Below, piece by piece: positions 3,276-57,240 of a stretch of 64,000 nt of DNA; the stretch's first letter is position 1, and each line of letters opens with the position of its first letter. Under the pieces are notes generated by a model. That model saw only the letters and a list, made by a program, of their open reading frames with translations. It was not told where the DNA came from and made no database searches. Origin of the DNA: Paludibacteraceae bacterium (GTDB lineage Bacteria > Bacteroidota > Bacteroidia > Bacteroidales > Paludibacteraceae); assembly GCA_017557345.1 (NCBI GenBank), contig JAFYZR010000076.1, positions 62,001 to 126,000 of the forward strand, in the 5' to 3' direction. The translations under genes and the position numbers were made by a program.

Positions 3276-3331
3276 ATTGTAAATTGGAAATTGGAAATTG
3301 GAGATTGTAAATTGTAAATTGGAGATTGGAA
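3276..3331. repeat. 7-bp tandem array, ATTGGAA type (8 units)
   Basis: Eight consecutive heptamers: ATTGTAA, ATTGGAA (twice), ATTGGAG, ATTGTAA (twice), ATTGGAG, ATTGGAA. It runs directly into the 18-bp direct repeat that opens the neighbouring 11-bp array. Confidence 0.9.
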
Positions 3332-3441
3332 AAATTGAACATTTTTGACCATTTTTTGAGGCATTTCACATAGGTACTACATAGGTAATGATAAGGTAAT
3401 GATACCGATAAGATACCGAGTAAGGAAAAATTGAACATTTT
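3328..3441. repeat. 11-bp tandem array flanked by 18-bp direct repeats (element A)
   Basis: Five 11-bp units (3369-3423): CATAGGTACTA, CATAGGTAATG, ATAAGGTAATG, ATACCGATAAG, ATACCGAGTAA. On either side lies the direct repeat GGAAAAATTGAACATTTT (3328-3345 and 3424-3441). The same architecture recurs at 43275-43365. It lies between the tRNA-Lys region and the convergent outer-membrane protein gene. Confidence 0.9.
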
Positions 3442-3451
3442 ACAAAAAAAC

Positions 3452-3478
3452 AGGCACCCAAAAGGATGCCTATTTTTC
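3452..3478 (-). terminator. Terminator of the outer-membrane protein gene
   Basis: Inverted repeat at 3452-3459 and 3464-3471. As RNA from the minus strand the stem pairs fully (one G-U pair), while on the plus strand it has a C-A mismatch, so it suits the minus-strand gene ending at 3502. A U tract follows on that strand. Confidence 0.75.
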
Positions 3479-3501
3479 GTTATTTTTCCGTTTCGAAATA
3501 A

Positions 3502-4485
3502 TTACTTAGTTCCGAAATAGAAAGCTAAATAGAGGTTAGCACCAACGTTCTCTGTACCGAAGGTAACACCGCTATAGTTAGCTACGTTACGAAGGTCTGT
3601 GAACGTCTCAACATTGCCAGTAAGGATGTTGTAACCCTCATACTGTTTGCAATTGTTGTTCGACCACTTATAGAGGAGGTCGAGGTTAACGTTCATACCG
3701 AGAGCGATTTTCGGAGCAACGAACCACTCAACACCAACGGTGGTGTAGAGACCGATACGATGCCAGAAAGCCTCACCTGCAGCTGGAGAAACAGCGTCGT
3801 TGATCAGACGAGTAGCAGCGTAAACGCCCGGCTCAGCATTGAAACCGTAAACATTGTCGCCAGCAGCGCCGAGAGCACCAGCAATAGTAGGAACTTGGTT
3901 CAGAGCTGTGATAGCATTACCATAGGAATAGGTGGTTTTGCGAGTTTGGAAAACATACATAGCACCAACACCAAATACACCTTGAACGCGCTTCTTACCG
4001 AGACGATACTCGATACCTGCGCTGAAGCTACCACCATATTGGCCTGCAATCTTAACATCTTGAACGAGTGCGTGCGAGAACGGATTCTCGTATTTAGCAG
4101 CATCATCCTCAACATTATAGATAGTACGTGTATGGTCAATAACAGCACCGATATTGAACTTAACGCCCAGTTGGTCGGTAAGCATATAACTACCCATGAT
4201 CGAAACGATCGGGTTACGCAAGATGTTTGCGCTGTTTTGGTTATAACCTAATCCTTGACCACCGATATTGTACTGGCCACGCGTGTAATTGTTCGGCGTA
4301 GAACCATTGAACATGTTGCCGAGGAAGTTGGCAAACGGGTCTACGGAGAAGCCAATGGAGAACTCGCCTGCCTCAGGCAGCCATGCAGTATAGTCTGCAT
4401 TTGCGCGCTCCTCAATACTTTGCTTCTCAGCAAACATCGGCATAGCCAACGCAGCAACGAGCATTATACTAAGAATCTTTTTCAT
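3502..4485 (-). CDS. Predicted outer-membrane beta-barrel protein
   Basis: 327 residues with a clear signal peptide (MKKILSIMLVAALAMPMFA, cleavage before EKQ). The mature part has alternating, glycine- and aromatic-rich stretches such as GVKFNIGAV and YGGSFSAGIEYRLG, and ends in aromatic-rich LYLAFYFGTK, the pattern of an outer-membrane barrel with an OmpA-like or porin-like fold. I do not recognise the specific family. It lies 54 bp after the lipoprotein gene with no promoter box between, so both are probably one transcript. A terminator follows at 3452-3478. Confidence 0.75.
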   Translation of the reverse strand: MKKILSIMLVAALAMPMFAEKQSIEERANADYTAWLPEAGEFSIGFSVDPFANFLGNMFNGSTPNNYTRGQYNIGGQGLGYNQNSANILRNPIVSIMGSYMLTDQLGVKFNIGAVIDHTRTIYNVEDDAAKYENPFSHALVQDVKIAGQYGGSFSAGIEYRLGKKRVQGVFGVGAMYVFQTRKTTYSYGNAITALNQVPTIAGALGAAGDNVYGFNAEPGVYAATRLINDAVSPAAGEAFWHRIGLYTTVGVEWFVAPKIALGMNVNLDLLYKWSNNNCKQYEGYNILTGNVETFTDLRNVANYSGVTFGTENVGANLYLAFYFGTK

Positions 4486-4539
4486 TGTAATTCTGTTTAA
4501 ATGATTAGATTGTACTTAAATTGGTTGTCTCAGATGAGA

Positions 4540-6051
4540 TTAATAGGTGTGACCACCACCGTAGATTTGATGAGAATCAGCGTCCTCATCAAGGTTCTGA
4601 CCATCAACAACGAGGCCAACACCGAGGAGTTGGGTGTTCTTGAAGTCGCTCGACATTTCGAATGCAGCTTTCTGCGTACCTACGTTAACATCGAAGAAGC
4701 CATCAGCAACAAATGCCGCAGATTTGAGTTCATAAGTACCTTCGCACTTCTGAGAATCGGTGTAGCTGGTTTGATTGGTCTTAGATGTCCAAACATACCA
4801 TACATCCAGGAATGCCTCCCAATCGCCGTTGTTTTTGTACTTAGCAATCTTGTAGTAGTGCGGGAAGTCTTTGGTTACGAATTTCTTGATGATAATGTAA
4901 ATCTTAACATCATCGAGTTTCCAAGCATCATAGATAGCAACCTCTTGGTTGAACTTACCGCTCTTGTCGCTCTCAACATTGCAGTCGTAGATGATAGAGC
5001 TCTCGTCAGCTTTACCCTCGTTGTGAACGAGTTGGATTTGGAATGCACCACCGTTAATTTTGTTGGTGTAAGCAGCAGCACCGTCTTTGGTAATGCTGAC
5101 AATTTCCTCTTCATGATCTTTAGTTGTGCTGTACTTCGGTTCCTCAACAGTAACCTTCAACTCACCCTTAACAACAATCTTGGTGTTCTTGGATGTAGGA
5201 TCTGTAACAGAGATACGATCAGCAACGATGTCGAGAATAGTAACTTCACCGTCTTTCAAGCCAGCGTTTTGAGCAGCGAGCAGACCGAAGATAGCGTCTT
5301 TCGACAAGAGTTTGTTGTTGAACTCTTCTGTGAATTTACCGTTGAATTGAGCGATGTTAACTTCGCAGTTCTTAGCGTCAGCAGCCTGAATTGGGAGTTT
5401 AGCCTCATAGGAACCGTCAGAAGCAGTCTTCGTAACGAAAGCACGGTCACGAGAAGCATCACCAGGAGCATACTTAACGATGATACGAACGGTTACGCCA
5501 GCCGGAGCAGCAACGAGACCATCCTCTTTTACACTACCTTTCTCAACAACACCAGCGTTGTAGGAAATTTTACCCTTAAGGGTAGCAGTTCCTTGGCAAG
5601 CAGTGAGAACCGGGTCAATCGGAGCAACCGTTTTCTTAACCTTAGCGTCGCCAGCATTCAAAGCAATAGCTTCGTCAGTCTCAGCCAAGAAGATACGAGC
5701 GCCTTCCTCACCGATAGCGATGATGTCGGTTTTCAGATTACCGTTGATGGTCTTAGCACCAGTCGGAACGGTGATCGAATAGCTACCATCCTCAGCGGTT
5801 GTAGCCTCGAAGATTTGGTTACCAGCAGCATTGTCAGCATACTTGTCAGCAGCGACGAGGAAATAAACGCGTTGGCCAGCAAGTGCGATCTCTTGCGAAG
5901 CAGCACCAGCCTTGTCAGCTACGTAAACCAGCGTACCGGAAATCTTAGCAGATTGTTTTACATCAGCAAAATCAAGCGAACTTTGATTTTGTTTTTCGCA
6001 GCCTACGAGAGCCATCATGGCTACTGCTGCGAATAAAAAGAATTTCTTCAT
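4540..6051 (-). CDS. Surface lipoprotein with repeated carboxypeptidase-regulatory-like modules
   Basis: 503 residues. The signal peptide ends in the lipobox LVGC with Cys18, followed by EKQNQSS. At least two modules (about residues 35-115 and 150-235) share a beta-sandwich pattern with the turn DGSY (DGSYSITVP and DGSYEAKLP), as in carboxypeptidase regulatory-like domains. The rest is unrecognised. Transcribed first in a two-gene unit with the downstream barrel protein. Its leader carries a 14-bp palindrome (6092-6105) shared with another lipoprotein gene at 52440. A 511-codon open frame on the opposite strand covers almost the whole gene but lacks any protein-like feature. The signal peptide and the promoter identify the minus strand as the coding one. 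Confidence 0.85.
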   Translation of the reverse strand: MKKFFLFAAVAMMALVGCEKQNQSSLDFADVKQSAKISGTLVYVADKAGAASQEIALAGQRVYFLVAADKYADNAAGNQIFEATTAEDGSYSITVPTGAKTINGNLKTDIIAIGEEGARIFLAETDEAIALNAGDAKVKKTVAPIDPVLTACQGTATLKGKISYNAGVVEKGSVKEDGLVAAPAGVTVRIIVKYAPGDASRDRAFVTKTASDGSYEAKLPIQAADAKNCEVNIAQFNGKFTEEFNNKLLSKDAIFGLLAAQNAGLKDGEVTILDIVADRISVTDPTSKNTKIVVKGELKVTVEEPKYSTTKDHEEEIVSITKDGAAAYTNKINGGAFQIQLVHNEGKADESSIIYDCNVESDKSGKFNQEVAIYDAWKLDDVKIYIIIKKFVTKDFPHYYKIAKYKNNGDWEAFLDVWYVWTSKTNQTSYTDSQKCEGTYELKSAAFVADGFFDVNVGTQKAAFEMSSDFKNTQLLGVGLVVDGQNLDEDADSHQIYGGGHTY

Positions 6052-6091
6052 AACTAAAAATTTTTAGTAAATAATGAATTAATTTAAAAAA

Positions 6092-6105
6092 TGTTTATAT
6101 AAACA
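6092..6105. promoter_or_regulatory. 14-bp palindrome TGTTTATATAAACA in lipoprotein leader
   Basis: A perfect palindrome 40 bp before the ATG of the lipoprotein gene and downstream of its promoter. The identical sequence lies 34 bp before the lipoprotein gene at 52440. Both are preceded by AATAAGT. Possible operator or mRNA element; function is inference. Confidence 0.6.
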
Positions 6106-6163
6106 ACCACTTATTTTGGTTTGTTTTCTATATTGGAAATATAGTTTTCCACATATTTCGGCA

Positions 6164-6194
6164 CAAAATTACAACTTTTTTTTCATATATGCAA
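6164..6194 (-). promoter_or_regulatory. Promoter of the lipoprotein-barrel unit
   Basis: Minus strand: TTG (6192-6194) in the extended form TTGCATATAT, 20 bp, TAATTTTG (6164-6171). It leaves a leader of about 110 nt that contains the palindrome at 6092-6105. Confidence 0.8.
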
Positions 6195-6220
6195 GAAAAA
6201 AATGAAAAATACGTAATTTT

Positions 6221-7006
6221 TTACAACTTTTCCGAAAAAAATCGCGCATCTTCCAACTGATTAATCTTCCCAACGTCCATCATTTTGTAGTTCTTAGGCA
6301 CAAAAGCTTTCAACACTTCTTCTTTGCAGATGCTCAGATAAAGATCGATAAGCGAGAACTTAGCGCCTTTTTCGGCAATAACGGCCTCCATATGATCAAA
6401 GATAGCGGGCGAAAGGATTTGCATGCCACTAAAAGCCAAAGGCTTGAGACCGGCTTGCTTATAGTCGAAAGTCGAAAAACCGTCCTTTGGGCTCAAAGAC
6501 TCAGGACGGACTTCGCCAGTAGCGATATTTGTCCAGCCACGGAGAGTATTCTCTTTGTCGAAAAGCAAATACCGTTGGGTTTCGCGAGGAGAGACAACAA
6601 GAAGGCCTAAAGAGGGGGACTTGCTGTATTCTTTGATAAAAGTCTTGATGTTAATATTCGACAGGATATCCACATTGCAAGCGAGAAAAGGAGAAGCGCT
6701 ATCGTTAGTAGGCAACAAGAGTTCCTTCGCTTTGCGAAGGCCTCCTCCTGTATCGAGAAGCGCATCTCGTTCGTCGGAGACAGAGATATTACATCCCCAA
6801 CCGTTATTGACACGAATGGCTTCGATGATTTGGTCCGAGAAATGATGGACGTTGACCACAATATCCTTGATTCCGGCATCACGCAGTTTCTCCACTTGCC
6901 ATTGGAGTAAAGGCTTGCCGTTAATAGGGACAAGCGCTTTGGGCATTGTATCGGTCAAAGGTTTTAACCTTGTGCCCAAGCCTGCGCAAAAGATTATCGC
7001 TTTCAT
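6221..7006 (-). CDS. murU: Nucleotidyltransferase, probable N-acetylmuramate 1-phosphate uridylyltransferase
   Basis: 261 residues. The N-terminal signature AGLGTRLKPLTDTMPKAL (from residue 8) is the nucleoside-triphosphate binding loop of sugar-1-phosphate nucleotidyltransferases. The length and the single catalytic domain match MurU. MurU makes UDP-MurNAc in the peptidoglycan recycling route that bypasses fosfomycin-sensitive de novo synthesis, using the product of the kinase AmgK. The gene directly follows an AmgK-like kinase and overlaps it by 4 nt (ATGA), as an AmgK-MurU pair would. The start was set at the ATG at 7006 because the glycine-rich loop must lie near the N-terminus. A different sugar (for example a heptose or mannose) cannot be excluded. 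Confidence 0.8.
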   Translation of the reverse strand: MKAIIFCAGLGTRLKPLTDTMPKALVPINGKPLLQWQVEKLRDAGIKDIVVNVHHFSDQIIEAIRVNNGWGCNISVSDERDALLDTGGGLRKAKELLLPTNDSASPFLACNVDILSNINIKTFIKEYSKSPSLGLLVVSPRETQRYLLFDKENTLRGWTNIATGEVRPESLSPKDGFSTFDYKQAGLKPLAFSGMQILSPAIFDHMEAVIAEKGAKFSLIDLYLSICKEEVLKAFVPKNYKMMDVGKINQLEDARFFSEKL

Positions 7007-8397
7007 CGTTTTATTCCTTGTTCTCGATGGATCAACTTGATCTGCACGTTGTATTTCTCTTTCAGGTGTTTGGCAAGATGTTCCGCGCAATAGACAGAAC
7101 GATGTTGCCCTCCAGTACAGCCGAAAGCGACTTGCAAGTGCGTGAATCCGCGTTCAATAAAACGCTCCACATGATGATCCACCAAGGCATCCACATGCTC
7201 CAAGAAAGTCAAAATCTCGCCATCTTTCTCGAGGAAATCAATTACCGGCTGATCCAACCCCGTCATCTGCTTAAATTCCTCGTATTTGCCGGGGTTATGG
7301 GTACTGCGGCAATCAAAGACATAACCACCTCCATTGCCCGAATCGTCCGCAGGAATGCCTTTTTTATAAGAGAACGAATAAATGGTTACGACAAGACCGG
7401 CTGCGCCTGAAAGACCGCATTCGCTGAAAGACCGCTCCGCTGAAAGACCGCTCGCCAAACTCGCTGAAAGACTAGTCAGATACGGATATTCGTCTTTTAG
7501 TTGCTCAAGCACTTCACGGAGGTTCTTTAAAGCCATCGGGATAGAGTCCAAGAAATGCTGTTTTCGTTCGAAATAACCGCGATAGCCATAAGCTCCAAGG
7601 ACTTGAAGTGTCCGGAATAGGACAAAATGAGGCAAAGCCGCCTTCCAGACATCTTTATTGAGGCTTTGAGATGTATGACTTAAGATTTGCTCTAGTTCAT
7701 CCAAATATGCATCGATTAGTTCGTTGCGAAGGGTTTGCGGGATATTCGCTTTTGCTTGCCACAAGAACGATGCAACATCATACTGCGTTGGTCCGCGACG
7801 ACCGCCCTGAAAATCGATAAAGTACGGCTGACCGTCCTTAATCATCACATTACGGCTCTGGAAATCGCGATAAAGGAAAGTTGAAAGAGAATTGGAGGAC
7901 GCGGAAAGGATGTTATTCACCAACTTATCAAAGTCATCTTCCAATGCTGGCTCGGAGAACTCTATCTTCGTGCCTTTGAGAAAACAATATTTGAAATAAT
8001 TGAGATCCCATCGAATGGATCGCTCATCCATAGCCGGTACAGGGAAACAAACTGACCAGTCAAAATCCTTTGCTCCTTCGATTTGTATATGCGCGAGCGC
8101 GCGCAATGCGCGTTCTAATAAGGTACGCTCTTCTGGCGTAAAACATCCCGTTTCACGGCCATGCTTAATTGCATCGAAAAGCAGCGTGTCACCCAAATCC
8201 TCTTGCGTGTAACTCATTTCATCTTCGCTGACCCATAGCACACGCGGCACAGGCAGTCCCTGCGAAGTAAAATGACGCGCCATATAAATGAACGCGCGAT
8301 TCTCATCGCGGTTCGTACCCTCGACACGAATAATGGACTGCCCCTGTTCATTCGTCTCGCGCGTATAAGTTCTATTTGATCCTTGCTGTTTTAGCAC
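7003..8397 (-). CDS. amgK: Fusion: AmgK-like sugar kinase plus RapZ C-terminal domain
   Basis: 464 residues. Residues 1-300 are an aminoglycoside-phosphotransferase fold kinase with the catalytic loop YRDFQSRN (176-183) and metal motif IDF (194-196), as in AmgK, which phosphorylates MurNAc and GlcNAc at the anomeric carbon. Residues 335-464 match the C-terminal domain of RapZ, including GCTGGQHRS (426-434); in enterobacteria this part binds glucosamine 6-phosphate. The linker (about 307-333) is made of a short DNA repeat (7407-7474). The gene overlaps the upstream lipid kinase by 7 nt and the downstream murU by 4 nt. The fusion suggests a kinase that senses amino-sugar levels; that role is inference. 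Confidence 0.85.
   Translation of the reverse strand: MLKQQGSNRTYTRETNEQGQSIIRVEGTNRDENRAFIYMARHFTSQGLPVPRVLWVSEDEMSYTQEDLGDTLLFDAIKHGRETGCFTPEERTLLERALRALAHIQIEGAKDFDWSVCFPVPAMDERSIRWDLNYFKYCFLKGTKIEFSEPALEDDFDKLVNNILSASSNSLSTFLYRDFQSRNVMIKDGQPYFIDFQGGRRGPTQYDVASFLWQAKANIPQTLRNELIDAYLDELEQILSHTSQSLNKDVWKAALPHFVLFRTLQVLGAYGYRGYFERKQHFLDSIPMALKNLREVLEQLKDEYPYLTSLSASLASGLSAERSFSECGLSGAAGLVVTIYSFSYKKGIPADDSGNGGGYVFDCRSTHNPGKYEEFKQMTGLDQPVIDFLEKDGEILTFLEHVDALVDHHVERFIERGFTHLQVAFGCTGGQHRSVYCAEHLAKHLKEKYNVQIKLIHREQGIKR
7407..7474. repeat. Degenerate tandem repeat in the kinase-RapZ linker
   Basis: The 11-mer CTGAAAGACCG occurs at 7407, 7424 and 7440, and as CTGAAAGACTA at 7464, so spacing is 17, 16 and 24 bp. 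Because the spacing is not a multiple of three, each copy is read in a different frame. The translated linker is rich in Ser, Gly, Ala and Leu. Confidence 0.8.
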
Positions 8398-9314: not shown

Positions 9315-9343
9315 TAAAATTTAAAGTTTAATGTATAGAAATC

Positions 9344-9376
9344 AACAAAGCGCACCAAAAAATAGTGCGCTTTGTT
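9344..9376. terminator. Strong inverted repeat between DUF4295 and the lipid kinase
   Basis: Perfect 12-bp stem AACAAAGCGCAC / GTGCGCTTTGTT with a 9-nt loop. It starts 7 bp after the stop of the DUF4295 gene in its direction of transcription. The T tract is on the plus-strand side, so it is a weak or bidirectional terminator, or an mRNA 3' stabiliser, for the ribosomal-protein transcript. Confidence 0.65.
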
Positions 9377-9383
9377 AGGTTTT

Positions 9384-9536: not shown

Positions 9537-9566
9537 AGTTTTAAGCCTTTCTAAAAATAGGGTTAA

Positions 9567-9755: not shown

Positions 9756-9772
9756 TGTTCAACTCCTTTCGT

Positions 9773-10820: not shown

Positions 10821-10875
10821 AGGTGATTACTGGGTGATTACAGGGTGGTAAGCGGGTGATTACTGGGTAATAATT
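10821..10875. repeat. 11-bp tandem array overlapping the 3' end of mnmA (element B)
   Basis: Five units on the plus strand: AGGTGATTACT, GGGTGATTACA, GGGTGGTAAGC, GGGTGATTACT, GGGTAATAATT. The last one and a half units code for the final residues (IITQ) and the stop of mnmA. Read on the minus strand the units are of the type ATCACCCAGTA, close to the arrays at 57175 and 23120. Confidence 0.9.
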
Positions 10876-11942
10876 CCTCCTCCAATGACTAAATCGTCTT
10901 GATAGAGGACGACTGATTGTCCCGGAGTAATGCCCCAAACGGGATTTGCGAAAGATAAGCGACATACCCCATTCTCCTCCCTAAAGGGAGGAGTTTTTAT
11001 TTCTATAGGATGGGATCTGTATCTTATTCGAGCAAATACCGGCGCATCATTTACAATCCGAACAGGACGCTCTTCTTGAAAATGCAATTCTGTAGCCAAG
11101 AGATCATCATTGGAACCCAGTGTCACTTGGTTTTTCTCTGCATCAATGTGCGTGACATACGCAGGTTGCCCAAGCGCAATTCCTAATCCTTTGCGCTGAC
11201 CGATAGTATAATTGACAAATCCTTGGTGCAGACCTAGCACTTTGCCGTTTTTATCGATATATTCTCCCGCGCGCACGCGTTCATTATAATCGGGTACGTT
11301 CGCGCGTAAGAAAGAGCGGTAGTCATCATCCGAAATAAAACATATTTCCTGGCTCTCGCGTTTGGTAGCCAATTTCTCATAGCCATGCTCACGCGCGATT
11401 TCACGCACTTGTTCTTTCGTCAAATCACCCAATGGGAAAATAGTTCGCCGCAGTTGCTCTTCGGTCAAGCGCCAGAGAAAATAAGTCTGGTCTTTATGCG
11501 TATCAACAGCCGTGCGCAAATACAAATGTCCGTCTCTTTCTGCAATTCGCGCATAATGACCCGTAGCAATAAAATCACAGCCCATCTCATCTGCTACTCG
11601 CAGCATTTCACCCCATTTGATAGTGCTATTGCAGAGAACACATGGATTAGGCGTTCGACCTGCCATATACTCGTCTATAAAGTTCTGAATAACACATTGC
11701 TTGAAAGATTCGCGAAAATCCACAATGTGATGCTCAAAACCCATTTTCTCTGCGTTGTGCTTTGCTTCCATGATCGATTCGATGGTACAGCAGCCTTTCT
11801 CTTTGGCCATACACGACTCTTTGATGCTATCGTACGTGCGAAAAGTAACACCAATAACTTCATATCCCTGCTCCAAAAGAAGCATGGCACTAACGGTGGA
11901 GTCTATTCCTCCGGACATACCGAGAAGCACACGTTTGGTCAT
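10860..11942 (-). CDS. mnmA: tRNA-specific 2-thiouridylase MnmA
   Basis: 360 residues. It introduces sulfur at C2 of wobble uridine 34 in tRNA Lys, Glu and Gln. The PP-loop motif GMSGGIDST is at residues 8-16. The catalytic cysteine is in NPCVLCN (Cys104), and a second conserved cysteine lies in EICFISDDDYRSFL. Last gene of the tamL-to-mnmA operon; its ATG overlaps the stop of msbA by 4 nt. Its last codons and stop are formed by an 11-bp repeat array. Confidence 0.95.
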   Translation of the reverse strand: MTKRVLLGMSGGIDSTVSAMLLLEQGYEVIGVTFRTYDSIKESCMAKEKGCCTIESIMEAKHNAEKMGFEHHIVDFRESFKQCVIQNFIDEYMAGRTPNPCVLCNSTIKWGEMLRVADEMGCDFIATGHYARIAERDGHLYLRTAVDTHKDQTYFLWRLTEEQLRRTIFPLGDLTKEQVREIAREHGYEKLATKRESQEICFISDDDYRSFLRANVPDYNERVRAGEYIDKNGKVLGLHQGFVNYTIGQRKGLGIALGQPAYVTHIDAEKNQVTLGSNDDLLATELHFQEERPVRIVNDAPVFARIRYRSHPIEIKTPPFREENGVCRLSFANPVWGITPGQSVVLYQDDLVIGGGIITQ

Positions 11943-23112: not shown

Positions 23113-23222
23113 ACCGAGAATAACGCACTTATCGCGCACTAATAGCGCACTTATCACGCACTAATCACGCACTAAATTTAACACATATCAATGATATAGT
23201 ATATATACATAGTATATATACT
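23113..23222. repeat. 11-bp tandem array with AT-rich hairpin (element C, copy 1)
   Basis: A 63-bp core (23113-23175) appears identical to 31523-31585. It holds five units: ATAACGCACTT, ATCGCGCACTA, ATAGCGCACTT, ATCACGCACTA (twice). After 22 bp comes a perfect inverted repeat: AGTATATATAC, loop ATA, GTATATATACT (23198-23222). It lies in the divergent spacer 22975-23384. Apart from the two promoters, nothing else is recognised in that spacer. Confidence 0.92.
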
Positions 23223-31522: not shown

Positions 31523-31632
31523 ACCGAGAATAACGCACTTATCGCGCACTAATAGCGCACTTATCACGCACTAATCACGCACTAATTTTTGCATGTAATT
31601 TCGTTGGTATTATATACTATGTATATAATACT
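31523..31632. repeat. 11-bp tandem array with AT-rich hairpin (element C, copy 2)
   Basis: The 63-bp core (31523-31585) appears identical to that at 23113-23175. After 22 bp comes a perfect inverted repeat: TATTATATAC, loop TAT, GTATATAATA (31608-31630), different in sequence but equal in form and place to copy 1. Lies in the divergent spacer between the PUR gene and nusB (31387-31810), which otherwise holds only the two promoters. Confidence 0.92.
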
Positions 31633-31810: not shown

Positions 31811-32764
31811 ATGATCAATAGAACGATGGTACGGACACGCGTGATACAAACGCTGTTCGCATATTACAAGGACAATGACAAGACACTTCATACGTTGCAC
31901 AAAGAGTTGCGCAAAAGTTTTGCCGACACGTATGATTTATATTTTGTATTGCTGGACTTTGCCAATGAGTTAACGGCTTATGCCCAACGTCAGTTGGAGG
32001 AGCAGTTGAGTCGTGCTCGTGCGACACATTCCGATTGGCAGCCGAACCGGCGTTTTGTGAATAACCGTTTGGCGAAGCAACTGTTTGAGAACCGCGCTCT
32101 GCGTGCCCGCATAACGGAACAGCACCTGGAATGGGATAGCGGCATGACGGCCATCATCGAGATATACCGGCAGTTGCAGGAGAGCGATTTCTTCCGCAAG
32201 TACATGGAGGCAGAGGAGTGCACTTATGATGACGACAAGCGTCTGTGGCGGCAGATTTACCAACATCTGCTGACCGGCAGCGAGGCGTTGGTTGAGGCGC
32301 TGGACGAGATGGAGATTGTGTTGGACAAAGCCAACTGGACTGTCGATGCCGATGTGATCCTCAGTTATGTAATCAAGACCGTGAAGCGTTTCAAGGCCGA
32401 CAGCACTCCTGAGACACCTCTGCTGGAGATGTTCGATAACAACGAGGAAGAGCAGTTCGCGCTGGAGTTGGCCGATAAAGTAGTGGAACATCATGAGCAG
32501 TTCGAGTCGCTCATCAACAGCCATCTGAAAGGCTGGGAGGCAGATCGAATAGCGGATATGGACCGCGTGCTTGTAGAGACCGCTCTGGCGGAGATCTTGA
32601 ACTTTGAGGATATACCGCTAACCATCTCGCTGAACGAATATATCGAGTTGGCCAAGACCTATTCAGGCGACAAGAGCTTTATGTTCGTCAATGGCATCCT
32701 GACCGAGATCTTGCGGGACATGAAGAGCGATGGAAACTTCTTGAAAGCATTAACACTTAAATAA
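31811..32764 (+). CDS. nusB: Transcription antitermination factor NusB
   Basis: 317 residues, much longer than the about 140-residue E. coli protein because Bacteroidetes NusB carries an N-terminal helical extension. It starts with MINRTMVRTRVIQTLFAYY, and the C-terminal core has the NusB pattern WEADRIADMDRVLVETALAE and IPLTISLNEYIELAKTYSGDK. Binds boxA RNA with S10. First gene of a run that continues to ybbR. Confidence 0.92.
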   Translation: MINRTMVRTRVIQTLFAYYKDNDKTLHTLHKELRKSFADTYDLYFVLLDFANELTAYAQRQLEEQLSRARATHSDWQPNRRFVNNRLAKQLFENRALRARITEQHLEWDSGMTAIIEIYRQLQESDFFRKYMEAEECTYDDDKRLWRQIYQHLLTGSEALVEALDEMEIVLDKANWTVDADVILSYVIKTVKRFKADSTPETPLLEMFDNNEEEQFALELADKVVEHHEQFESLINSHLKGWEADRIADMDRVLVETALAEILNFEDIPLTISLNEYIELAKTYSGDKSFMFVNGILTEILRDMKSDGNFLKALTLK

Positions 32765-43284: not shown

Positions 43285-43365
43285 AACATTTTTGCATAGG
43301 TGTTACATAGGTAATAACCTCGACATAATACCGATGAGATACCGATAGGAAAAATTGAACATTTT
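43275..43365. repeat. 11-bp tandem array flanked by direct repeats (element D)
   Basis: Five units (43295-43349): CATAGGTGTTA, CATAGGTAATA, ACCTCGACATA, ATACCGATGAG, ATACCGATAGG. The left direct repeat at 43275-43292 differs from the right one at 43348-43365 (GGAAAAATTGAACATTTT) by one base, and that difference creates the TAG stop of the YggS-HAD gene. The same layout is seen at 3328-3441. It fills most of the spacer before the DUF59 gene. Confidence 0.9.
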
Positions 43366-45782: not shown

Positions 45783-45864
45783 TGCGGCATAAAAGACTCG
45801 AACTTTCACTCCTCTCGGAACCAGATCCTAAGTCTGGCGCGTCTACCAATTCCGCCAATGCCGC
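45783..45864 (-). tRNA. tRNA-Leu (anticodon TAG)
   Basis: 82 nt. Acceptor stem GCGGCAT/ATGCCGC, D arm region TGGCGGAATTGGTAGACGC, anticodon stem CCAGA/TCTGG with loop CTTAGGA (anticodon TAG), a long variable arm as expected for leucine (about TTCCGAGAGGAG), and T loop TTCGAGT. No encoded CCA. Confidence 0.95.
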
Positions 45865-45924: not shown

Positions 45925-45955
45925 CAAAGGTACTGCTTTTTTTTGAATTATGCAA
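45925..45955 (-). promoter_or_regulatory. Promoter of tRNA-Leu
   Basis: Minus strand: TTG (45953-45955), 20 bp, TACCTTTG (45925-45932). Core 45924-45945 identical to tRNA-Lys and rpmB promoters. The -33 box lies within the first codons of the divergent M16 peptidase gene. Confidence 0.85.
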
Positions 45956-47206
45956 GAAAAATCGCAAACTTTTTATCATATTTTAGCAAATGGCGTCAAA
46001 ATAGTTCATCGTTTGACGTCCTCTCCTGTTGCGTATATCGGTGTAATGGTTGGCGCCGGCACAAGAGATGAAACGCCAGACATTAATGGCATGGCGCATT
46101 ATATCGAACATTGCGTTTTCAAGGGCACACATCATCATTCCGCGCGGCAAATCATCCATGCCATCGAAGGAATCGGCGGAGAAATAAATGCTTATACCAC
46201 CAAAGAAGAGACGACTTTCTATGCCGCCATACTTTGCGAACATGTGCAACTAACCTTGCATCTTATTGCGGAAATGTTACTTGAACCGACTTTCAAGAAA
46301 GAAGAGACAGATAAAGAGCGCATGGTTATTCTGGATGAGATAGAAAGCTATAACGACCAGCCAAGCGAACTGATTTATGATGACTTTGAGAGTCTTGTTT
46401 TTTCGGGAAGCAGTCTGGCTTTGCCGATTTTAGGCACAAAAAAGACACTCAAACATATCAGTTCAAAGCCTGAATATCCGCTCAACTGGATGAAACAGCA
46501 TTATCTTCCTGAACGGATGGTTGTTTTTTGTCAAGGAAATATCAAACCCGAAAAAATCTTCAAATTAGCGGAGAAAGAGTTTGGCGGACTTTCTGTATTA
46601 TCTGCCGATAAAACCTCGATAAAACCTCGACATAATACCGATGAAATACCGATCAATAACCGAGAGGTAAGTTACAAACGCCATACGCATCAAATTCATG
46701 CCATGTTAGGCGGTAGAGCTTATCGAATCGGCGATACGAATCAACCTGCGATGTTTCTTCTTAATAACATTTTAGGCGGCGGAAGTCTCAACAGCCGTTT
46801 GAATTTACGACTTCGCGAAGCGAAAGGTTTGGTTTATACCGTTGAATCGACTTATACTCCTCTCAGCGATACCGGATACTGGTGTGTTTATTGGGCATGC
46901 GATCCGGAAGATTACGAACAAAGTCTAGGATTAGTACGTTCCGAACTGGATAAACTCAGGGAAACGCCCTTAAGCGAGTCGGCTTTTTGCAAAGCGCTTG
47001 TGCAATTGCGCGGTCAATTGGCGATTTCTGCGCAAAATCAAGAGAATAGCGCGTTAGCGATGGCAAAATCGATGTTGTATCGAGGCGTTGCACCTTCTTG
47101 GGAAGAAAGTATGGAACGCATCGAACGCACGAGCATCGCACAACTTCAACAAGTAGCCCAAGAGATATTTTCTCCCTCAAATATATACATTTTGACATAC
47201 GAATAA
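45950..47206 (+). CDS. M16-family zinc metallopeptidase
   Basis: 418 residues. The inverted zinc motif HYIEH is near residue 50 (MAHYIEHCVFKGT), followed by the third ligand region EETDKERMVILDE. The second half is the M16 C-terminal domain (LGGGSLNSRLNLRLREAKGLVYTVES). Processing-peptidase type. The only suitable start is the ATG at 45950. An 11-bp repeat array (46607-46661) is translated inside the linker between the two domains. No clear plus-strand promoter lies upstream; the tRNA-Leu promoter occupies that region. Confidence 0.9.
   Translation: MQEKSQTFYHILANGVKIVHRLTSSPVAYIGVMVGAGTRDETPDINGMAHYIEHCVFKGTHHHSARQIIHAIEGIGGEINAYTTKEETTFYAAILCEHVQLTLHLIAEMLLEPTFKKEETDKERMVILDEIESYNDQPSELIYDDFESLVFSGSSLALPILGTKKTLKHISSKPEYPLNWMKQHYLPERMVVFCQGNIKPEKIFKLAEKEFGGLSVLSADKTSIKPRHNTDEIPINNREVSYKRHTHQIHAMLGGRAYRIGDTNQPAMFLLNNILGGGSLNSRLNLRLREAKGLVYTVESTYTPLSDTGYWCVYWACDPEDYEQSLGLVRSELDKLRETPLSESAFCKALVQLRGQLAISAQNQENSALAMAKSMLYRGVAPSWEESMERIERTSIAQLQQVAQEIFSPSNIYILTYE
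46607..46661. repeat. 11-bp tandem array inside the M16 peptidase gene (element E)
   Basis: Five units: GATAAAACCTC (twice), GACATAATACC, GATGAAATACC, GATCAATAACC. The 30 bases 46624-46653 match 43317-43346 of element D at 29 positions. The units are translated as DKTSIKPRHNTDEIPINN. Confidence 0.88.
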
Positions 47207-50685: not shown

Positions 50686-50739
50686 GAATTGAAATTTATG
50701 ATTTGTAATTTATGATTTCAACTTTGATATTTTAGAATT
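50686..50739. repeat. 7-bp tandem array, AATTTAT type (about 8 units)
   Basis: GAATTGA, AATTTAT, GATTTGT, AATTTAT, GATTTCA, ACTTTGA, TATTTTA, GAATTAT, filling the susC-susD gap up to the ATG at 50740. Confidence 0.7.
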
Positions 50740-52353: not shown

Positions 52354-52391
52354 AAATAAGAAAAAACGACAGTTTCCGAAAGGAATAAGTC

Positions 52392-52405
52392 TGTTTATAT
52401 AAACA
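52392..52405. promoter_or_regulatory. 14-bp palindrome TGTTTATATAAACA before a lipoprotein gene
   Basis: Identical to 6092-6105 and 34 bp before the ATG at 52440. Preceded by AATAAGT in both cases. Between susD and the third gene of the operon. Confidence 0.6.
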
Positions 52406-52439
52406 CTTTATTAATCAATTAAAAACAAAAACAATCATT

Positions 52440-53567
52440 ATGAAAAAATCTCTGATTGTATTGGCAGCTGCCCTTGTAGCATTGGTAGGCTGCAAAAAAG
52501 ATCCAGGTAGTGCTTATACCAAGCTTGAGATCAAACAAGCTCCCGAAATTTCTATCGAGGTAGGTGAGACAGCAAAACTGAATCTTGTTTACGCACCAAC
52601 CGAATTGCCGGCTCCTGTATGCGAGTGGTCTTCCAGCGACTCCACCAAGGTTAAAGTTGACCAGAACGGTAACGTAACCGGTATTGCTCTTGGTGAGGCA
52701 AACGTAACTGCACAAATCGGCGAGAAGAAAGCCGTTTGCAAAGTTAACGTAAAAGACATGTATGACATGATCGAATGGGGTGCAGCAACATGGTGGAGCA
52801 TCAGCAAAACTCCGCTTAGCAACGACACCGTAGTTCGTGAGTCTACAAGCAATCCTGGCAACTTCTTCCACTGTGTTCCAATTCTGGCAACCTTCCGTAT
52901 TTGGGACACCAATGTTGTTTACGATGAAGGTCTGACCGGTGTAGGTTTCATCGCAATGGGTACCGGTTGTGTTCTTTTGATCACCGACTCCCTTGATCAG
53001 AATGGTCCTAACTACTACTATCTCGGCCGTGACTCGATTCGCTTCGTGGCTCCTGAGAAATGGAATCCTTACAGCGCAGAGTTTGCATACTCCGCTCCTG
53101 CAGGTTTGATCACTGGCGAGGCTGAGGCAAACTACCAGTACTGGTTCAAGGGTGTAGGTGACGGCGCAACTTATGGAACTGAAATCTGCATCATCAACTG
53201 GGATGACGAGGAAGGTCCTTCATACGAAGATCCTCTCGTAGGTTTCATGGGTGAAGGTTTGTTCGTTGGTGACGAGACATTCTGCAAAGAATATGACGTA
53301 GATGCAACATGGTTTGACGGTCCATTTAACGAAGAGCATCCGAGCTACTGCGGTTTGGCCCTGACATGGGTTGAAGGTGCAACTGAAGAAGAAAGCGGTT
53401 GGGATCTTGCAGTTCCACATGCATGGGCTCCGACTATCAAAAAGCACTACACCTTGGCTCCTGCAAACGATGCAAGCAGATTTGGCAACGAAGTTCGCGA
53501 ATTTGCGAAACCGATTCAAATGCCGAAGCGTGAACTCAAAGACACTAAAGTTCTTGTTAAAAAATAA
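52440..53567 (+). CDS. Surface lipoprotein with Ig-like (BIG2) domain
   Basis: 375 residues. Lipobox LVGC (Cys18), then KKDPGS. Residues about 28-100 are a bacterial Ig-like group 2 domain (ISIEVGETAKLNLVY, VCEWSSSDSTKVKVDQNGNVTG, GEANVTAQIG). The remainder is unrecognised, tryptophan- and glycine-rich. As the third gene after susC-susD, it probably is a SusE/F-like surface glycan- or protein-binding lipoprotein; that is inference. A hairpin terminator follows (53584-53619). Confidence 0.8.
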   Translation: MKKSLIVLAAALVALVGCKKDPGSAYTKLEIKQAPEISIEVGETAKLNLVYAPTELPAPVCEWSSSDSTKVKVDQNGNVTGIALGEANVTAQIGEKKAVCKVNVKDMYDMIEWGAATWWSISKTPLSNDTVVRESTSNPGNFFHCVPILATFRIWDTNVVYDEGLTGVGFIAMGTGCVLLITDSLDQNGPNYYYLGRDSIRFVAPEKWNPYSAEFAYSAPAGLITGEAEANYQYWFKGVGDGATYGTEICIINWDDEEGPSYEDPLVGFMGEGLFVGDETFCKEYDVDATWFDGPFNEEHPSYCGLALTWVEGATEEESGWDLAVPHAWAPTIKKHYTLAPANDASRFGNEVREFAKPIQMPKRELKDTKVLVKK

Positions 53568-53583
53568 ACTTTAGTTTTTCGAC

Positions 53584-53619
53584 AAAAAATGGCATGTGCA
53601 TTTGCATATGTCATTTTTT
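53584..53619 (+). terminator. Terminator after the BIG2 lipoprotein, overlapping the next promoter
   Basis: 17-nt arms AAAAAATGGCATGTGCA and TGCATATGTCATTTTTT pair with two G-U pairs, then U-rich sequence. The 3' arm contains the -33 box of the M6 promoter. Confidence 0.75.
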
Positions 53620-53632
53620 ATTTGTACCTTTG
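53602..53632 (+). promoter_or_regulatory. Promoter of the M6 protease
   Basis: TTG (53602-53604) as TTGCATATGT, 20 bp, TACCTTTG (53625-53632). Confidence 0.85.
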
Positions 53633-53658
53633 CAATCGATTTTGGAAATGCACTGGTT

Positions 53659-56487
53659 ATGAATAAGATACTTTCCGTTATATTGGGATGCCTTGTTAGT
53701 CTGAATTTGTTTGCAGTAATGGCATCTCCAGAACCGATTGAGGTCACTCAACCGGATGGCAGTATTTTGCATGTTCGATTAGTGGGTGATGAGTTTCACA
53801 ATTACTATACATTGTTAGATGGTACGCCTATTTGCCAAAACGGTAAAGGCGAATGGATAACTGATTTCTCTGTAACTAAAGAGTCTGCAAGTATTCAGAA
53901 AGTGCGTCGCGGTTTCCAAGAAAAACAAGTATCCTCCACCTTCCCTTTGACCGGTTCGCCCAAAAGCGTTGTGATTCTTGTTAATTTTGCTGATTTGGAA
54001 TTCAATCACACATTGGATGATTTCCAAAAGATGCTCAATGAGTCGGGTTATAGCGCAAATGGCGGTGTGGGTTCTGCTCGCGATTATTTTATTGCATGTT
54101 CGGATAGCGTTTTCTCTCCTATATTTGATTGTTACGGTCCTGTAACGTTAAGTAAAGGTTATGCCTACTACGGAGGTAATAGTGGCGACAACAGCAGTGT
54201 TCATGCATCACAAATGGTTATTGAGGCTTGTACCTTAGTGGCAGATGAACTGGGTGTTGATATGTCTCAATATGACACGAACAATGATGGCCGTTTGGAC
54301 AATGTATTCATCTATTATGCCGGACATAACGAGGCAGAGCATGGCGGAGAAAATACGATTTGGCCACATCGCAGCTATATTACCAGCGGGGATCGTGTGA
54401 GCGGTAAGTTGATTTATGACTATGCATGTTCGTCGGAATTGCGTGGTCCGAGCGGTAATGCAATGTGCGGTATCGGTACTTTCTGCCATGAATTTGGTCA
54501 TGTGTTAGGTTTACCGGATTATTATGACACAGGTTATAATTATTATACCGTTGGCGCATGGGATATAATGTGTTCAGGCAGTTACAACGGAAACGGCAAG
54601 ATGCCACCAAGTTATTCTGCCGGCGAACGTTTTCAATTAGGATGGCTGACTCCTATTCAACTGAAAGAGGCTGGTCCCTATACATTGGAGCCCTTGGAGA
54701 CAAGCAATAAAGCATATCTTATAGCAACAACCGACCATAATTTAAGTTGGGAGGATGCTTCACCAAGCGAGTACTGGCTTTTGGAAAATCGTCAGGCTCT
54801 TGGCTGGGATGCCGCAAGCGAAGCATTGCCAGGAACCGGTATGTTAATCTGGCATATCGATTATAATGCCGCTGCTTGGGGCAGGAATCAGCCCAACAAC
54901 AGTCTTCCTTTACGCTATGATATAGAAGAAGCCGGAGGCAAGAAAGGCTATGCTGCAGCCAGCGATCCTTTTCCGGGCACATTCAATGTAATGCAATTTA
55001 CTCCTGTTTTGCACAATAATACCATTGTTGAGCAACCATTATTAAACATCGGTCAAGACGGGGAAAATATTACCTTTATCTTCAAATCCAGCGGAACGGA
55101 CAATTTCATGATTCTACCGACAGAATTGCCTATACTTCAAAGCACCTATAATTCGTCCAACAAAGAAGCAGAAACTCCGGCAGAGAAGTTGAAAATCATT
55201 GGCAGTCATCTTGATCCGAATGAACAAGTCACTATCAGCATATCCGGTAACGGATTTTATCTCTCTGTGGATAGTTCTGCATGGAAAAACAGTATAAGCG
55301 TTTCCGTAGAAGCCGATTCGACGATGGAACAAGTGTTGTATGTACATTATGCTCCAAAGAAACAAATATGCGATGTACAACGCGGAACTATCACCATGCG
55401 CCAAACGAAAGCTGTTGGATCATACATTGTTCTTGGCACAAGTCCACGGCCTATTCTTATCGATGCTCCTTCTGTAGATTCGCTCTATGAAGTGACTCCC
55501 ACATCATTTAAGGTACATTGGGAGCCAGAGAAAGATGCAGAGTTTTACTATGTGACTCTTTATCACATGGAAGATGGCAGCGAGACGACCATGGAAAGCT
55601 TCGAAGGTTTTGATGACGAGGCAATCGTTCATGAAGCCGGCTGGTACAGTTCTTTCTTCCGAACGACAACCAAGGCGAAAGAGGAAGGATTAGTATCTAT
55701 GTGGTTTAAAGAAGACGGAGAACGAATGCTCAGTCCAATATATAATATGCCAGTAATCGAGGTTTCTATGTGGCTAAACGCTCCCGCAACAACCGACAAT
55801 GAAGTGGGTTGGATTATTTTATCCGGCATAGGAGAAAACTCGACATATGTATTAGATACAATAGAAATCAAAAAGAGCACCAAAAAATATACCTATCAAC
55901 GCTCGCTGGACGAGAATATGGGTATAAGACGCTTTGAGATTCGATATGCATCGTTTGGCGGCGAAGGCGTTTGTGTAGATGCATTCACAACCACTTTCAA
56001 TCAAAAAACGGTATATACATATAAAGGTCGCGAGCGTACCATTGAGGCGCAAGAAGGCAAACAAGCGGCACATTATACCGCATTCTATGCATACGATTTG
56101 ATTCCGGAAACAGCTTATTACCTGCAATTACAATGTTCAGAAGACAAAGGCTGTCAGGAACATTTGAGTGATTTGAGCATGCCGATGGTTATTTTTACCA
56201 AGAAAGGAGAAGATGCCGATTCTAAGCGCTTGACGATAGATTGCGATTCTTTATCCTATGATTACAAAACACATGTGGTTTATATTCCTCAATCGTTATC
56301 CACCGGTAGTGTTGCGATTTATAGCGTAGAGGGTGAATTGGTAAAGACCATTCCTGTTGATCCGACCCAAAATGTTGTTATTTTGCCCGAGAATGAACTT
56401 CGTCGCGGTATGGTTTATATTATTAAATATATGCCAGGAAATAGACTGAGACGTAAGAATCCATGGATTAAAATTCTATTCAGATAG
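53659..56487 (+). CDS. Secreted M6-family (immune inhibitor A type) metalloprotease
   Basis: 942 residues. Signal peptide (MNKILSVILGCLVSLNLFAVMA). Catalytic domain with the zinc motif HEFGHVLGLPDYYD (His277, Glu278, His281) and the Met-turn region AWDIMCSGSYNG. C-terminal half: beta-sandwich and fibronectin-like modules (about 600-850), then a tail VAIYSVEGELVKTI, ILPENELRRGMVYIIKY that resembles a type IX secretion sorting domain but ends in the unusual basic RLRRKNPWIKILFR. A secreted protease likely feeding peptides to the SusCD system (inference). Start at 53659; the upstream in-frame ATG lies in the promoter. Confidence 0.9.
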   Translation: MNKILSVILGCLVSLNLFAVMASPEPIEVTQPDGSILHVRLVGDEFHNYYTLLDGTPICQNGKGEWITDFSVTKESASIQKVRRGFQEKQVSSTFPLTGSPKSVVILVNFADLEFNHTLDDFQKMLNESGYSANGGVGSARDYFIACSDSVFSPIFDCYGPVTLSKGYAYYGGNSGDNSSVHASQMVIEACTLVADELGVDMSQYDTNNDGRLDNVFIYYAGHNEAEHGGENTIWPHRSYITSGDRVSGKLIYDYACSSELRGPSGNAMCGIGTFCHEFGHVLGLPDYYDTGYNYYTVGAWDIMCSGSYNGNGKMPPSYSAGERFQLGWLTPIQLKEAGPYTLEPLETSNKAYLIATTDHNLSWEDASPSEYWLLENRQALGWDAASEALPGTGMLIWHIDYNAAAWGRNQPNNSLPLRYDIEEAGGKKGYAAASDPFPGTFNVMQFTPVLHNNTIVEQPLLNIGQDGENITFIFKSSGTDNFMILPTELPILQSTYNSSNKEAETPAEKLKIIGSHLDPNEQVTISISGNGFYLSVDSSAWKNSISVSVEADSTMEQVLYVHYAPKKQICDVQRGTITMRQTKAVGSYIVLGTSPRPILIDAPSVDSLYEVTPTSFKVHWEPEKDAEFYYVTLYHMEDGSETTMESFEGFDDEAIVHEAGWYSSFFRTTTKAKEEGLVSMWFKEDGERMLSPIYNMPVIEVSMWLNAPATTDNEVGWIILSGIGENSTYVLDTIEIKKSTKKYTYQRSLDENMGIRRFEIRYASFGGEGVCVDAFTTTFNQKTVYTYKGRERTIEAQEGKQAAHYTAFYAYDLIPETAYYLQLQCSEDKGCQEHLSDLSMPMVIFTKKGEDADSKRLTIDCDSLSYDYKTHVVYIPQSLSTGSVAIYSVEGELVKTIPVDPTQNVVILPENELRRGMVYIIKYMPGNRLRRKNPWIKILFR

Positions 56488-56528
56488 GGAATCCTCCATT
56501 TTGCCCCACTTTTTGCAAAATTGTTAAA

Positions 56529-56565
56529 AACCCGTATAATTCATTGAAATTGTGCGGGTTTCTTT
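56529..56565 (+). terminator. Terminator of the M6 protease gene
   Basis: 13-bp stem 56529-56541 / 56548-56560 (two G-U pairs), loop CATTGA or close, followed by TTTCTTT. Confidence 0.85.
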
Positions 56566-56617
56566 ATGTCAATTCTTGTCGAAAACATGTTAACAAAACA
56601 ATTAATAATTTTTTTTG

Positions 56618-56658
56618 TGGGGAAATGTGGTGAATATCAATTTTTTTTTGTATCTTTG
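56618..56658 (+). promoter_or_regulatory. mraZ promoter with possible MraZ operator
   Basis: The -7 box TATCTTTG is at 56651-56658. The -33 region does not have TTG but two direct repeats TGGGG (56618-56622) and TGGTG (56628-56632), 10 bp apart. MraZ binds TGGGN repeats with this spacing in other bacteria and represses its own operon, so this is a plausible autoregulatory site. Confidence 0.65.
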
Positions 56659-56708
56659 CACCCGATTTTAAAAGTATTCAGAATTTAGGGATTAAAATTC
56701 AGAATTAT

Positions 56709-57173
56709 ATGGGAACATTTGTAGGTAATATAGAGGGACGTTTGGATGAAAAAGGACGAATCTTCGTTCCTGCCAATTATCGTAAGATTCTTGCAGAGAC
56801 GGGTTCTAAATTCATGGTTATGCGCCGTGATACGGATAACGAATGTCTGATGTTCTATCCAGAGCATGTGTGGAATGAGAAAGTAGAGCAGTTGCGTCAG
56901 ACCTTAGACGAATGGGATCCGGAAGATCAGTTAATCCTTATGCAATTTATGGCAGATGCTGAGTATTTGGAGATGGATGGTCAGGGACGCATCTTACTTC
57001 AACGCAAGAATTTAGAGACGATTAATGCCCAACAAGATGTTTTATTTGTTGGTATGCTCAATCGTTTTGCTCTCTGGGCACCAGAGACTTTTGCTGCAAA
57101 ACGGTTAAGTCAAACGGAACTGGCGGCAAGATTGCGGGCAAAAATGGCTAAAGGAGGTCCTAAAGAGTACTAA
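56709..57173 (+). CDS. mraZ: Transcriptional regulator MraZ
   Basis: 154 residues. Two SpoVT/AbrB-like MraZ modules: GNIEGRLDEKGRIFVPANYRK and YLEMDGQGRILLQRKNLE. DNA-binding repressor of the dcw cluster. First gene of the cluster; followed by an 11-bp repeat array and rsmH. Confidence 0.95.
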   Translation: MGTFVGNIEGRLDEKGRIFVPANYRKILAETGSKFMVMRRDTDNECLMFYPEHVWNEKVEQLRQTLDEWDPEDQLILMQFMADAEYLEMDGQGRILLQRKNLETINAQQDVLFVGMLNRFALWAPETFAAKRLSQTELAARLRAKMAKGGPKEY

Positions 57174-57174
57174 T

Positions 57175-57240
57175 ATAACTTACTAATCACCTACGAATAA
57201 CCTACTAATAACCTACTAATCACCTACTAATCACCTACTA
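57175..57240. repeat. 11-bp tandem array between mraZ and rsmH (element F)
   Basis: Six units: ATAACTTACTA, ATCACCTACGA, ATAACCTACTA (twice), ATCACCTACTA (twice), followed by GAGTAAGG, also seen at the end of element A. The unit ATCACCTACTA differs from ATCACGCACTA (element C) at two positions. Confidence 0.92.

What the first reader, a model, noticed from the sequence alone, without database searches (positions are those of the whole stretch)
3328..57240. A dispersed family of 11-bp-period tandem arrays, usually five units long
Seven loci carry tandem units of exactly 11 bp: 3369-3423, 10821-10875, 23120-23174, 31530-31584, 43295-43349, 46607-46661 and 57175-57240. Six have five units (55 bp), one has six. 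Several unit types are clearly related when read on one strand: ATCACCCAGTA, ATCACCTACTA, ATCACGCACTA, with ATACCGAGTAA as a shared variant. The period is close to one DNA helical turn, so the conserved bases would lie on one face of the helix. The near-constant unit number argues against simple drift of slippage repeats. I know of no described family like this in Bacteroidales. Possible roles: binding sites of a nucleoid or regulatory protein, or mobile/repair-derived elements.
Basis: seen in the sequence. Interest (0 to 1): 0.85.

Follow-up and report, generated by a model that had tools for sequence, protein, structure and literature searches.

The report
Five-repeat DNA docking site near promoters
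Bacteria of one genus, many of them sampled from ruminant guts, carry a DNA element of (usually five) 11-base repeats that is often followed by a palindrome at a nearly fixed distance and mostly lies between genes; it is likely a docking site for a DNA-binding protein that has yet to be found.

Summary
In detail: all seven arrays are there. The window alone holds 5 scored arrays at lag 11, against 0 at lags 8-10, 12 and 13 and 2 at lag 7.

The arrays are two things. Family A (23120, 31530) is a composite element: 11-bp units, about 22 bp of free sequence, then a palindrome. In this genome 23 of 23 copies have both. Of 62 loci from other species chosen by a three-unit pattern, 48 have exactly five units. 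Where a dyad with arms of at least 9 bp lies within 70 bp (69 of 89 loci), its centre is 33.5-35.5 bp from the array in 59 and about one helical turn further in 8. The dyad sequence varies but keeps the plan arm-N3-arm. I read this as a DNA-level docking site for a cooperatively binding protein plus a dimer, working like plasmid R1 parC. No protein was found.

The other five arrays (families B, C, D) are looser: unit number varies, and units are shared between loci of a genome but often differ between species, even inside one peptidase gene.

Against it: some copies are recent, 25 of 89 loci lack the two main dyads, and nusB loci of 29 relatives have no array. Mobile-repeat, RNA and Rho readings rank lower.

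The parts
23120..23174 (+). Family A array, five 11-bp units (ATMRCGCACTW)
23198..23222 (.). Type-2 dyad AGTATATATAC-N3-GTATATATACT of the array at 23120
31530..31584 (+). Family A array, identical five units, between the divergent promoter motifs of the nusB-like gene and the 31018-31398 gene
31607..31631 (.). Type-1 dyad GTATTATATAC-N3-GTATATAATAC of the array at 31530
57175..57240 (+). Family C array (ATMACCTACTA, six units) in the gap between the gene at 56709-57173 (mraZ, named by recall from its sequence and position) and rsmH (57268-58260); no dyad
10821..10875 (-). Family D array (ATCACCCAGTA on the minus strand); supplies the stop codon of mnmA (10860-11942, minus)
3369..3423 (.). Family B array of two half-arrays (GGTAATGATAA and ATACCGATAAG)
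43295..43349 (.). Family B array, broken, between two co-directional genes; below the scan threshold
46607..46661 (+). Family B array in frame inside an M16-like peptidase gene (45950-47206), in a variable linker
31811..32764 (+). NusB-family gene downstream of the element at 31530

Best explanation
The constrained part of the finding, family A, is likely a DNA-level docking site in which copies of an unknown DNA-binding protein would load side by side on usually five 11-bp repeats and would contact a dimer predicted to sit on the palindrome about two or three helical turns away. Shown: the architecture, the usual unit number, the near-constant spacing, the invariant T1 arms, and the position near promoter motifs of many copies. 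Inferred: that a protein binds, that it binds cooperatively on one face of the helix, and that the complex regulates a neighbouring promoter or organises the chromosome there. The other families (B, C, D and the species-specific ones) are read as looser arrays of the same kind without the dyad, which turn over quickly and are copied or converted between loci of a genome by an unknown route.
For: (1) Unit number: 48 of 62 named loci, chosen by a three-unit pattern, have exactly five units (3 units 2, 4 units 4, 6 units 6, 7 units 2); 22 of 23 in this genome, though these were found with a five-unit query; 2 of 4 in other genomes (72 of 89 in all). (2) Length without sequence: of 69 loci (of 89) with a dyad of 9-bp arms or more within 70 bp, the centre lies 33.5-35.5 bp from the array end in 59 and 43.5-44.5 in 8, about one turn further; one each at 41 and 52.5. 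In 35 same-position pairs with diverged flanks the linker is 49% identical, against 27% and 30% in the flanks and 94% in the dyad. (3) T1, T2 and T4 dyads differ in sequence but share arm-N3-arm at about the same place. (4) T1 arms are invariant: of 87 loci examined, 51 have 0 mismatches, 1 has 2 (one on each arm, dyad kept), 35 have 7 or more and none has 3-6. T1 occurs in 23 of 81 genomes of the genus, 18 times in this one, with a reversed-pattern control of 0. (5) No palindrome of type 1 or 2 was seen without an array in the sampled stretches of this genome (23 of 23) or of G022 and G033 (3 of 3). (6) Position: 46 of 89 loci have an orthologous neighbour gene on the same side and strand as another locus. 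Where the right-hand gene points away, a promoter motif for it lies beyond the array's right end in 54 of 63, before the array in 2, not found in 7. [quoted passage not shown]
Against: No binding protein was identified or searched for. The array identity (92%) is largely built in: named loci were chosen by an exact pattern over three units, and only the last 33 bp were compared. The dyad identity there is limited to loci with an exact T1 or T2, and the pairs are not independent. Non-orthologous copies give nearly the same profile (26, 90, 50, 94, 36, 28), so recent spread or gene conversion could explain the likeness without function. 25 of 89 loci have neither T1 nor T2; two of them have a dyad centred about 84-85 bp away, off the pattern (L049, L083). 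T1 is missing from 58 of 81 genomes of the genus. Of 52 left-hand genes pointing away, 18 have a promoter motif on the far side of the element, so the element would be transcribed. The promoter motif is recalled and its chance rate was not measured. Downstream genes are mixed, not an obvious regulon. The nusB copy was seen in this species only, and 29 nusB loci of relatives hold no 11-bp array at all.
Confidence: 0.45

Rival explanations
1. A selfish dispersed repeat (MITE- or REP-like): array plus palindrome are the body of a small non-autonomous mobile element with no host function.
For: 23 matches in this genome, six of them 100% identical over 61 bases. The nusB copy not seen in 29 loci of other species. 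Copies at different positions are as alike as copies at the same position. Family A is found more often than expected in divergent gaps, where insertion would do least harm (8 of 20 in this genome, 31 of 56 elsewhere, not independent; such gaps are 22-23% of intergenic bases).
Against: 46 of 89 loci share a neighbour gene with another locus; linker of near-constant length but drifting sequence; different dyad sequences at about the same spot. Y1 transposase matched in 6 of 17 genomes (5 over the cut-off) and reverse transcriptase in 5 of 17; other transposases were not searched. No empty site was found by blast (0 of 83 queries).
Confidence: 0.28
2. A transcribed RNA element: array and hairpin act in a leader or small RNA.
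For: 21 of 80 loci have a promoter motif pointing through the array from its right side: at 69-71 bp in 11, 73 in 2, 80-82 in 4, 91 in 1, 8-9 in 2, 113 in 1; 6 of the 21 are T1 loci. The 75 bp right of the array fold better than shuffles (mean z -3.4 in 63 T1/T2 loci, -2.1 in 24 others; flank controls -0.6 and -0.9).
Against: 59 of 80 loci show no such motif. A dyad folds by construction. No Rfam match except two tRNAs in the 11 sources searched. No excess pairing outside the T1 stem (51 distinct loci).
Confidence: 0.13
3. Rho-dependent terminators: a C-rich, G-poor rut array with a pyrimidine-C site per 11 nt, then a pause hairpin.
For: The anatomy fits the RhoTermPredict motif (C>G, C every 11-13 nt, hairpin within 150 nt; PMC6407284 passages). 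In co-directional gaps the C-rich strand follows the genes in 41 and opposes them in 22.
Against: Family A favours divergent gaps, and convergent gaps are not favoured (1 of 20, 3 of 56). Several copies lie behind an intrinsic terminator-like hairpin (by eye). In one shared-position group 7 of 8 loci would transcribe the G-rich strand. RhoTermPredict scores GC-rich stems; the T1 stem is AT-rich.
Confidence: 0.06
4. Ordinary slippage minisatellites that inherited an 11-bp period from a founder array.
For: Non-A arrays range from 3 to 11 units. Units often differ between species at the same site and are alike inside each array.
Against: Does not explain unit number, linker and dyad of family A, nor the same unit at unlinked loci of one genome (G022, G006).
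Confidence: 0.08

Closest known systems
parC iterons of plasmid R1 (ParR, parMRC)
   Same: Direct repeats of 11 bp (22-bp fragment for two) in sets of five; the parC oligonucleotide is A/C-rich and G-poor (PMC4949242, passages)
   Different: Plasmid centromere with two sets of five; here one set per site, 23 copies in this genome, plus a dyad; linked par genes were not searched for
parS heptads of pSM19035 (Omega, ribbon-helix-helix)
   Same: Contiguous repeats bound one dimer per unit, overlapping promoters; ATCAC also occurs in family A, C and D units (PMC9499535, passages)
   Different: 7-bp units, 7-10 per site, on a plasmid
TAACTGA heptamer repeats of Beggiatoaceae, some Cyanobacteria and five Bacteroidetes; cyanobacterial STRR repeats (STRR seen only in a search listing)
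   Same: Many short intergenic direct-repeat arrays with no pattern in gene function (PMC4679880, abstract and passages)
   Different: 7-bp period, one fixed sequence, mostly just before start codons; no dyad mentioned in what I saw
Tandem repeats of archaeal Borgs
   Same: Pervasive arrays in intergenic DNA and in disordered protein regions, fast evolving (PMC9879509, abstract and passages)
   Different: Perfect repeats, units essentially unique to each region, unit length a multiple of 3 inside genes
REP/RAYT palindromic repeats (recalled)
   Same: Dispersed intergenic palindromes
   Different: Y1 transposase matched in only 6 of 17 genomes; here an 11-bp array accompanies the palindrome

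Membership tests
parMRC centromere (R1 parC) | 11-bp direct repeats, five per set | tested here: met
   22 of 23 here, 48 of 62 named loci
parMRC centromere (R1 parC) | two sets at one site | tested here: not met
   one set, mostly with a dyad
parMRC centromere (R1 parC) | linked parM/parR genes, ParR binding | not tested
   no gene search made; binding cannot be tested here
pSM19035 parS | contiguous 7-bp WATCACW units | tested here: not met
   family A period is 11
REP/RAYT elements | a Y1 transposase in the host | tested here: inconclusive
   PF01797 matches in 6 of 17 genomes of the genus, one in this genome
Rho-dependent terminator | C>G tract with C every 11-13 nt and a hairpin downstream | tested here: met
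   by reading units and dyads against the motif; RhoTermPredict itself was not run
Rho-dependent terminator | lies in the sense RNA downstream of a gene | tested here: not met
   divergent gaps favoured by family A; 22 of 63 co-directional gaps antisense
TAACTGA/STRR heptamer repeats | 7-bp unit | tested here: not met
   11-bp unit; separate 7-bp arrays exist in the same genomes
Borg tandem repeats | unit sequence essentially unique to each site | tested here: not met
   same units at many loci

The most novel reading that the evidence does not exclude
A genus-specific chromosomal system, new to biology: a protein filament nucleates on five-site arrays and docks on a dimer bound whole helical turns away, at up to tens of intergenic stations per genome, acting as dispersed centromere-like or insulator-like stations that set local chromosome structure.
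Probability: 0.3. Interest if true: 0.85.

Novelty: new variant of a known kind. Interest (0 to 1): 0.68.

Why it matters
Evenly spaced site arrays are familiar from plasmid centromeres. A chromosome-wide version with a usual number of sites and a spaced dyad would point to an undescribed global DNA-binding system in a little-studied gut lineage. The looser arrays also offer a natural test of how arrays change unit sequence yet keep their period.

Tried and rejected
Telomerase-like writer (reverse transcriptase in 5 of 17 genomes) and Y1/REP mobilisation (6 of 17): not general in this sample of partly incomplete genomes. Phage or plasmid origin: a 122-base family-A query has no match in phages or plasmids, and three patterns have none in viral contigs. 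Known RNA family: none beyond two tRNAs in 11 sources. Outer stem around the T1 hairpin: no excess pairing in 51 loci. Clean empty sites by blast among fetched loci: 0 of 83 queries. Replication bias: the C-rich strand lies on the positive-skew strand in 35 of 47 arrays, confounded with gene direction and not used. Regulon: downstream genes are mixed. Literature: searches listed no 11-bp array family in Bacteroidales; only listings were seen, and only the held library was searched.
Full report
Observation. The window is G000:C67:62001-126000 of a 2.84-Mb, 155-contig assembly with 6.8% estimated contamination. All seven arrays exist; six pass 28 of 44 lag-11 matches. The window alone gives 5 arrays at lag 11, 0 at lags 8, 9, 10, 12 and 13, and 2 at lag 7. 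Over 642,345 bp of this genome the scan gives 39 at lag 11, 1 each at lags 9, 10, 12 and 13, 11 at lag 8 and 27 at lag 7, but many of these stretches were fetched because they hold family A or C. In four other species of the genus the counts at lag 11 and lag 7 are 9 and 10 (G022), 16 and 35 (G033), 7 and 43 (G006), 10 and 63 (G015): 11 stands above most of its neighbours (lag 8 is 12 in G015), yet 7-bp arrays are as common or commoner there.

Restriction to the genus. At rsmH: 23 arrays in 32 loci of the genus, 2 in 26 loci of other genera of the family, 0 in 28 loci of other families. rsmH was picked because it has an array here, which favours the first number; at nusB 29 loci of other species of the genus have none. 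The family-A query matches 14 of 36 other genomes of the genus and 0 of 24 from other families. The T1 dyad occurs in 23 of 81 genomes of the genus and, in a sample of 395 genomes of the phylum, only in this one; that sample held no other member of the genus or family. A scan of one genome per species for a 28-base family-A pattern gave 69 stretches, 66 in records titled Bacteroidales or Paludibacteraceae and 3 elsewhere (L042, L078, L085), which show no dyad by eye. Several titles name goat, sheep, yak or roe deer gut.

Two kinds of array. Family A (ATMRCGCACTW) has 23 matches in this genome, six 100% identical over 61 bases. All 23 have a palindrome to the right: T1 in 18, T2 in 5. Families B, C and D showed none by eye. 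They lie in tight gaps, often starting at a stop codon, and one is in frame inside an M16-like peptidase gene.

Looser arrays. Arrays pass the scan in the M16 linker in 8 of 29 loci of other species, and in the gap upstream of rsmH in 8 of 29 (my count of the rows); unit sequences often differ, though G004 and G022 share one. The linker is variable in relatives generally. The M16 unit recurs elsewhere in the genome in this species (family B), in G022 and in G006 (two other arrays clearly, a third loosely, of six others); in G015 no other copy was seen in 398 kb. Unit numbers of non-A arrays in five genomes: 3 units 2, 4 units 21, 5 units 10, 6 units 11, 7 units 6, 11 units 1. These behave like concertedly evolving minisatellites whose units also spread between loci.

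Family A, unit number. 89 distinct loci: 72 with five units, 7 six, 6 four, 2 three, 2 seven. By source: this genome 22 of 23 (found with a five-unit query), named loci 48 of 62 (found with a three-unit pattern), other stretches 2 of 4. In 60 named loci the first unit outside the selecting pattern matches the core at 4.77 of 6 positions on average and the second at 4.28.

Family A, conservation. 46 of 89 loci have an orthologous neighbour gene on the same side and strand as another locus; some groups rest on one gene or on close relatives. In 35 of 43 same-position pairs (flank identity at most 70%) identity is 27% left of the array, 92% in the last 33 bp of the array, 49% in the linker, 94% in the dyad, 42% in the tail, 30% further right. 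The array figure is largely built in by selection, and only exact T1 or T2 loci entered. Non-orthologous pairs between this species and others give 26, 90, 50, 94, 36 and 28, so the likeness is not tied to position; selection, conversion and recent spread are all possible. The T1 arms are cleaner evidence: of 87 loci, 51 have no mismatch, one has two, one on each arm, and 35 have seven or more. Of 89 loci, 52 have T1, 12 T2 and 25 neither.

Helical geometry. Of 69 loci with a dyad of 9-bp arms or more within 70 bp, the centre lies 33.5-35.5 bp from the array end in 59 and 43.5-44.5 in 8; one each at 41 and 52.5. Two further loci have dyads centred about 84-85 bp away (L049, L083). T1, T2 and T4 differ in sequence but share arm-N3-arm; weaker hairpins with other loops occur in some loci without them. 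A linker of near-constant length and drifting sequence, with a second class about one turn further, is what a complex on double-stranded DNA would need. That step is inference.

Context. Of 80 loci with both neighbours called, 39 are divergent, 24 and 13 co-directional, 4 convergent. For right-hand genes pointing away (63), a promoter motif (recalled consensus TAnnTTTG with an upstream TTG) lies beyond the array's right end in 54, before the array in 2, not found in 7. For left-hand genes pointing away (52) it lies left of the element in 28, right of it in 18 (element transcribed), not found in 6. Divergent gaps hold 8 of 20 family-A arrays here and 31 of 56 elsewhere, against 22-23% of intergenic bases (loci at shared positions are not independent). 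The nusB copy lies between two divergent promoter motifs and was not seen in 600 bp upstream of nusB in 29 loci of other species. Downstream genes are mixed: nusB by hmmscan, others such as rho-, ileS- and murF-like by eye.

Rho reading. One strand is C-rich and G-poor with a C every 11 nt and a hairpin downstream, as in the motif of RhoTermPredict (PMC6407284 passages). Orientation is 41 to 22 in co-directional gaps; the preference of family A for divergent gaps speaks against it.

RNA reading. In 21 of 80 loci a promoter motif points through the array from the right, at 69-71 bp in 11. This is unexplained and keeps an RNA role open for that subclass.

Mobility. Identical copies and the nusB case indicate that family A has spread within this lineage. 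The route is unknown.

Comparison. [quoted passage not shown] pSM19035 parS has 7-10 heptads (PMC9499535 passages). In my reading family A works like these but is not shown to be a member: one set plus a dyad, on the chromosome. TAACTGA repeats (PMC4679880, abstract and passages) and Borg repeats (PMC9879509, abstract and passages) are the nearest dispersed arrays that I saw in print.

Noticed in passing
window 3274-3332 and 58255-58314; all sampled genomes of the genus: 7-bp arrays are as common as 11-bp arrays or commoner in four other species (63 in 398 kb of G015) and lie mostly in the opposite orientation relative to genes (17 with, 41 against).
   Followed up: partly
L047, L051, L058, L064, L072, L076, L080, L095, L103, L106, L259: A promoter motif pointing through the array lies 69-71 bp from its right end, in several loci although the left gene has its own motif or points the other way.
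   Followed up: partly
window 46607-46661; loci L142, L143, L145, L146, L147, L149, L151, L152: The same variable linker of an M16-like peptidase holds 11-bp arrays, often of a different unit, in relatives.
   Followed up: yes
L044, L090, L100: These carry other perfect 9-3-9 dyads; L044 and L100 do so at positions where other species have T1 or T2.
   Followed up: partly
L004: A family-A element lies upstream of a gene that looks by eye like the transcription terminator rho.
   Followed up: no
family A and C arrays: Units at the 5' end tend to be degenerate and those at the 3' end near-perfect, in the same direction in both families (by eye).
   Followed up: no
window 3045-3117 and 45783-45864: Two tRNA genes.
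   Followed up: no
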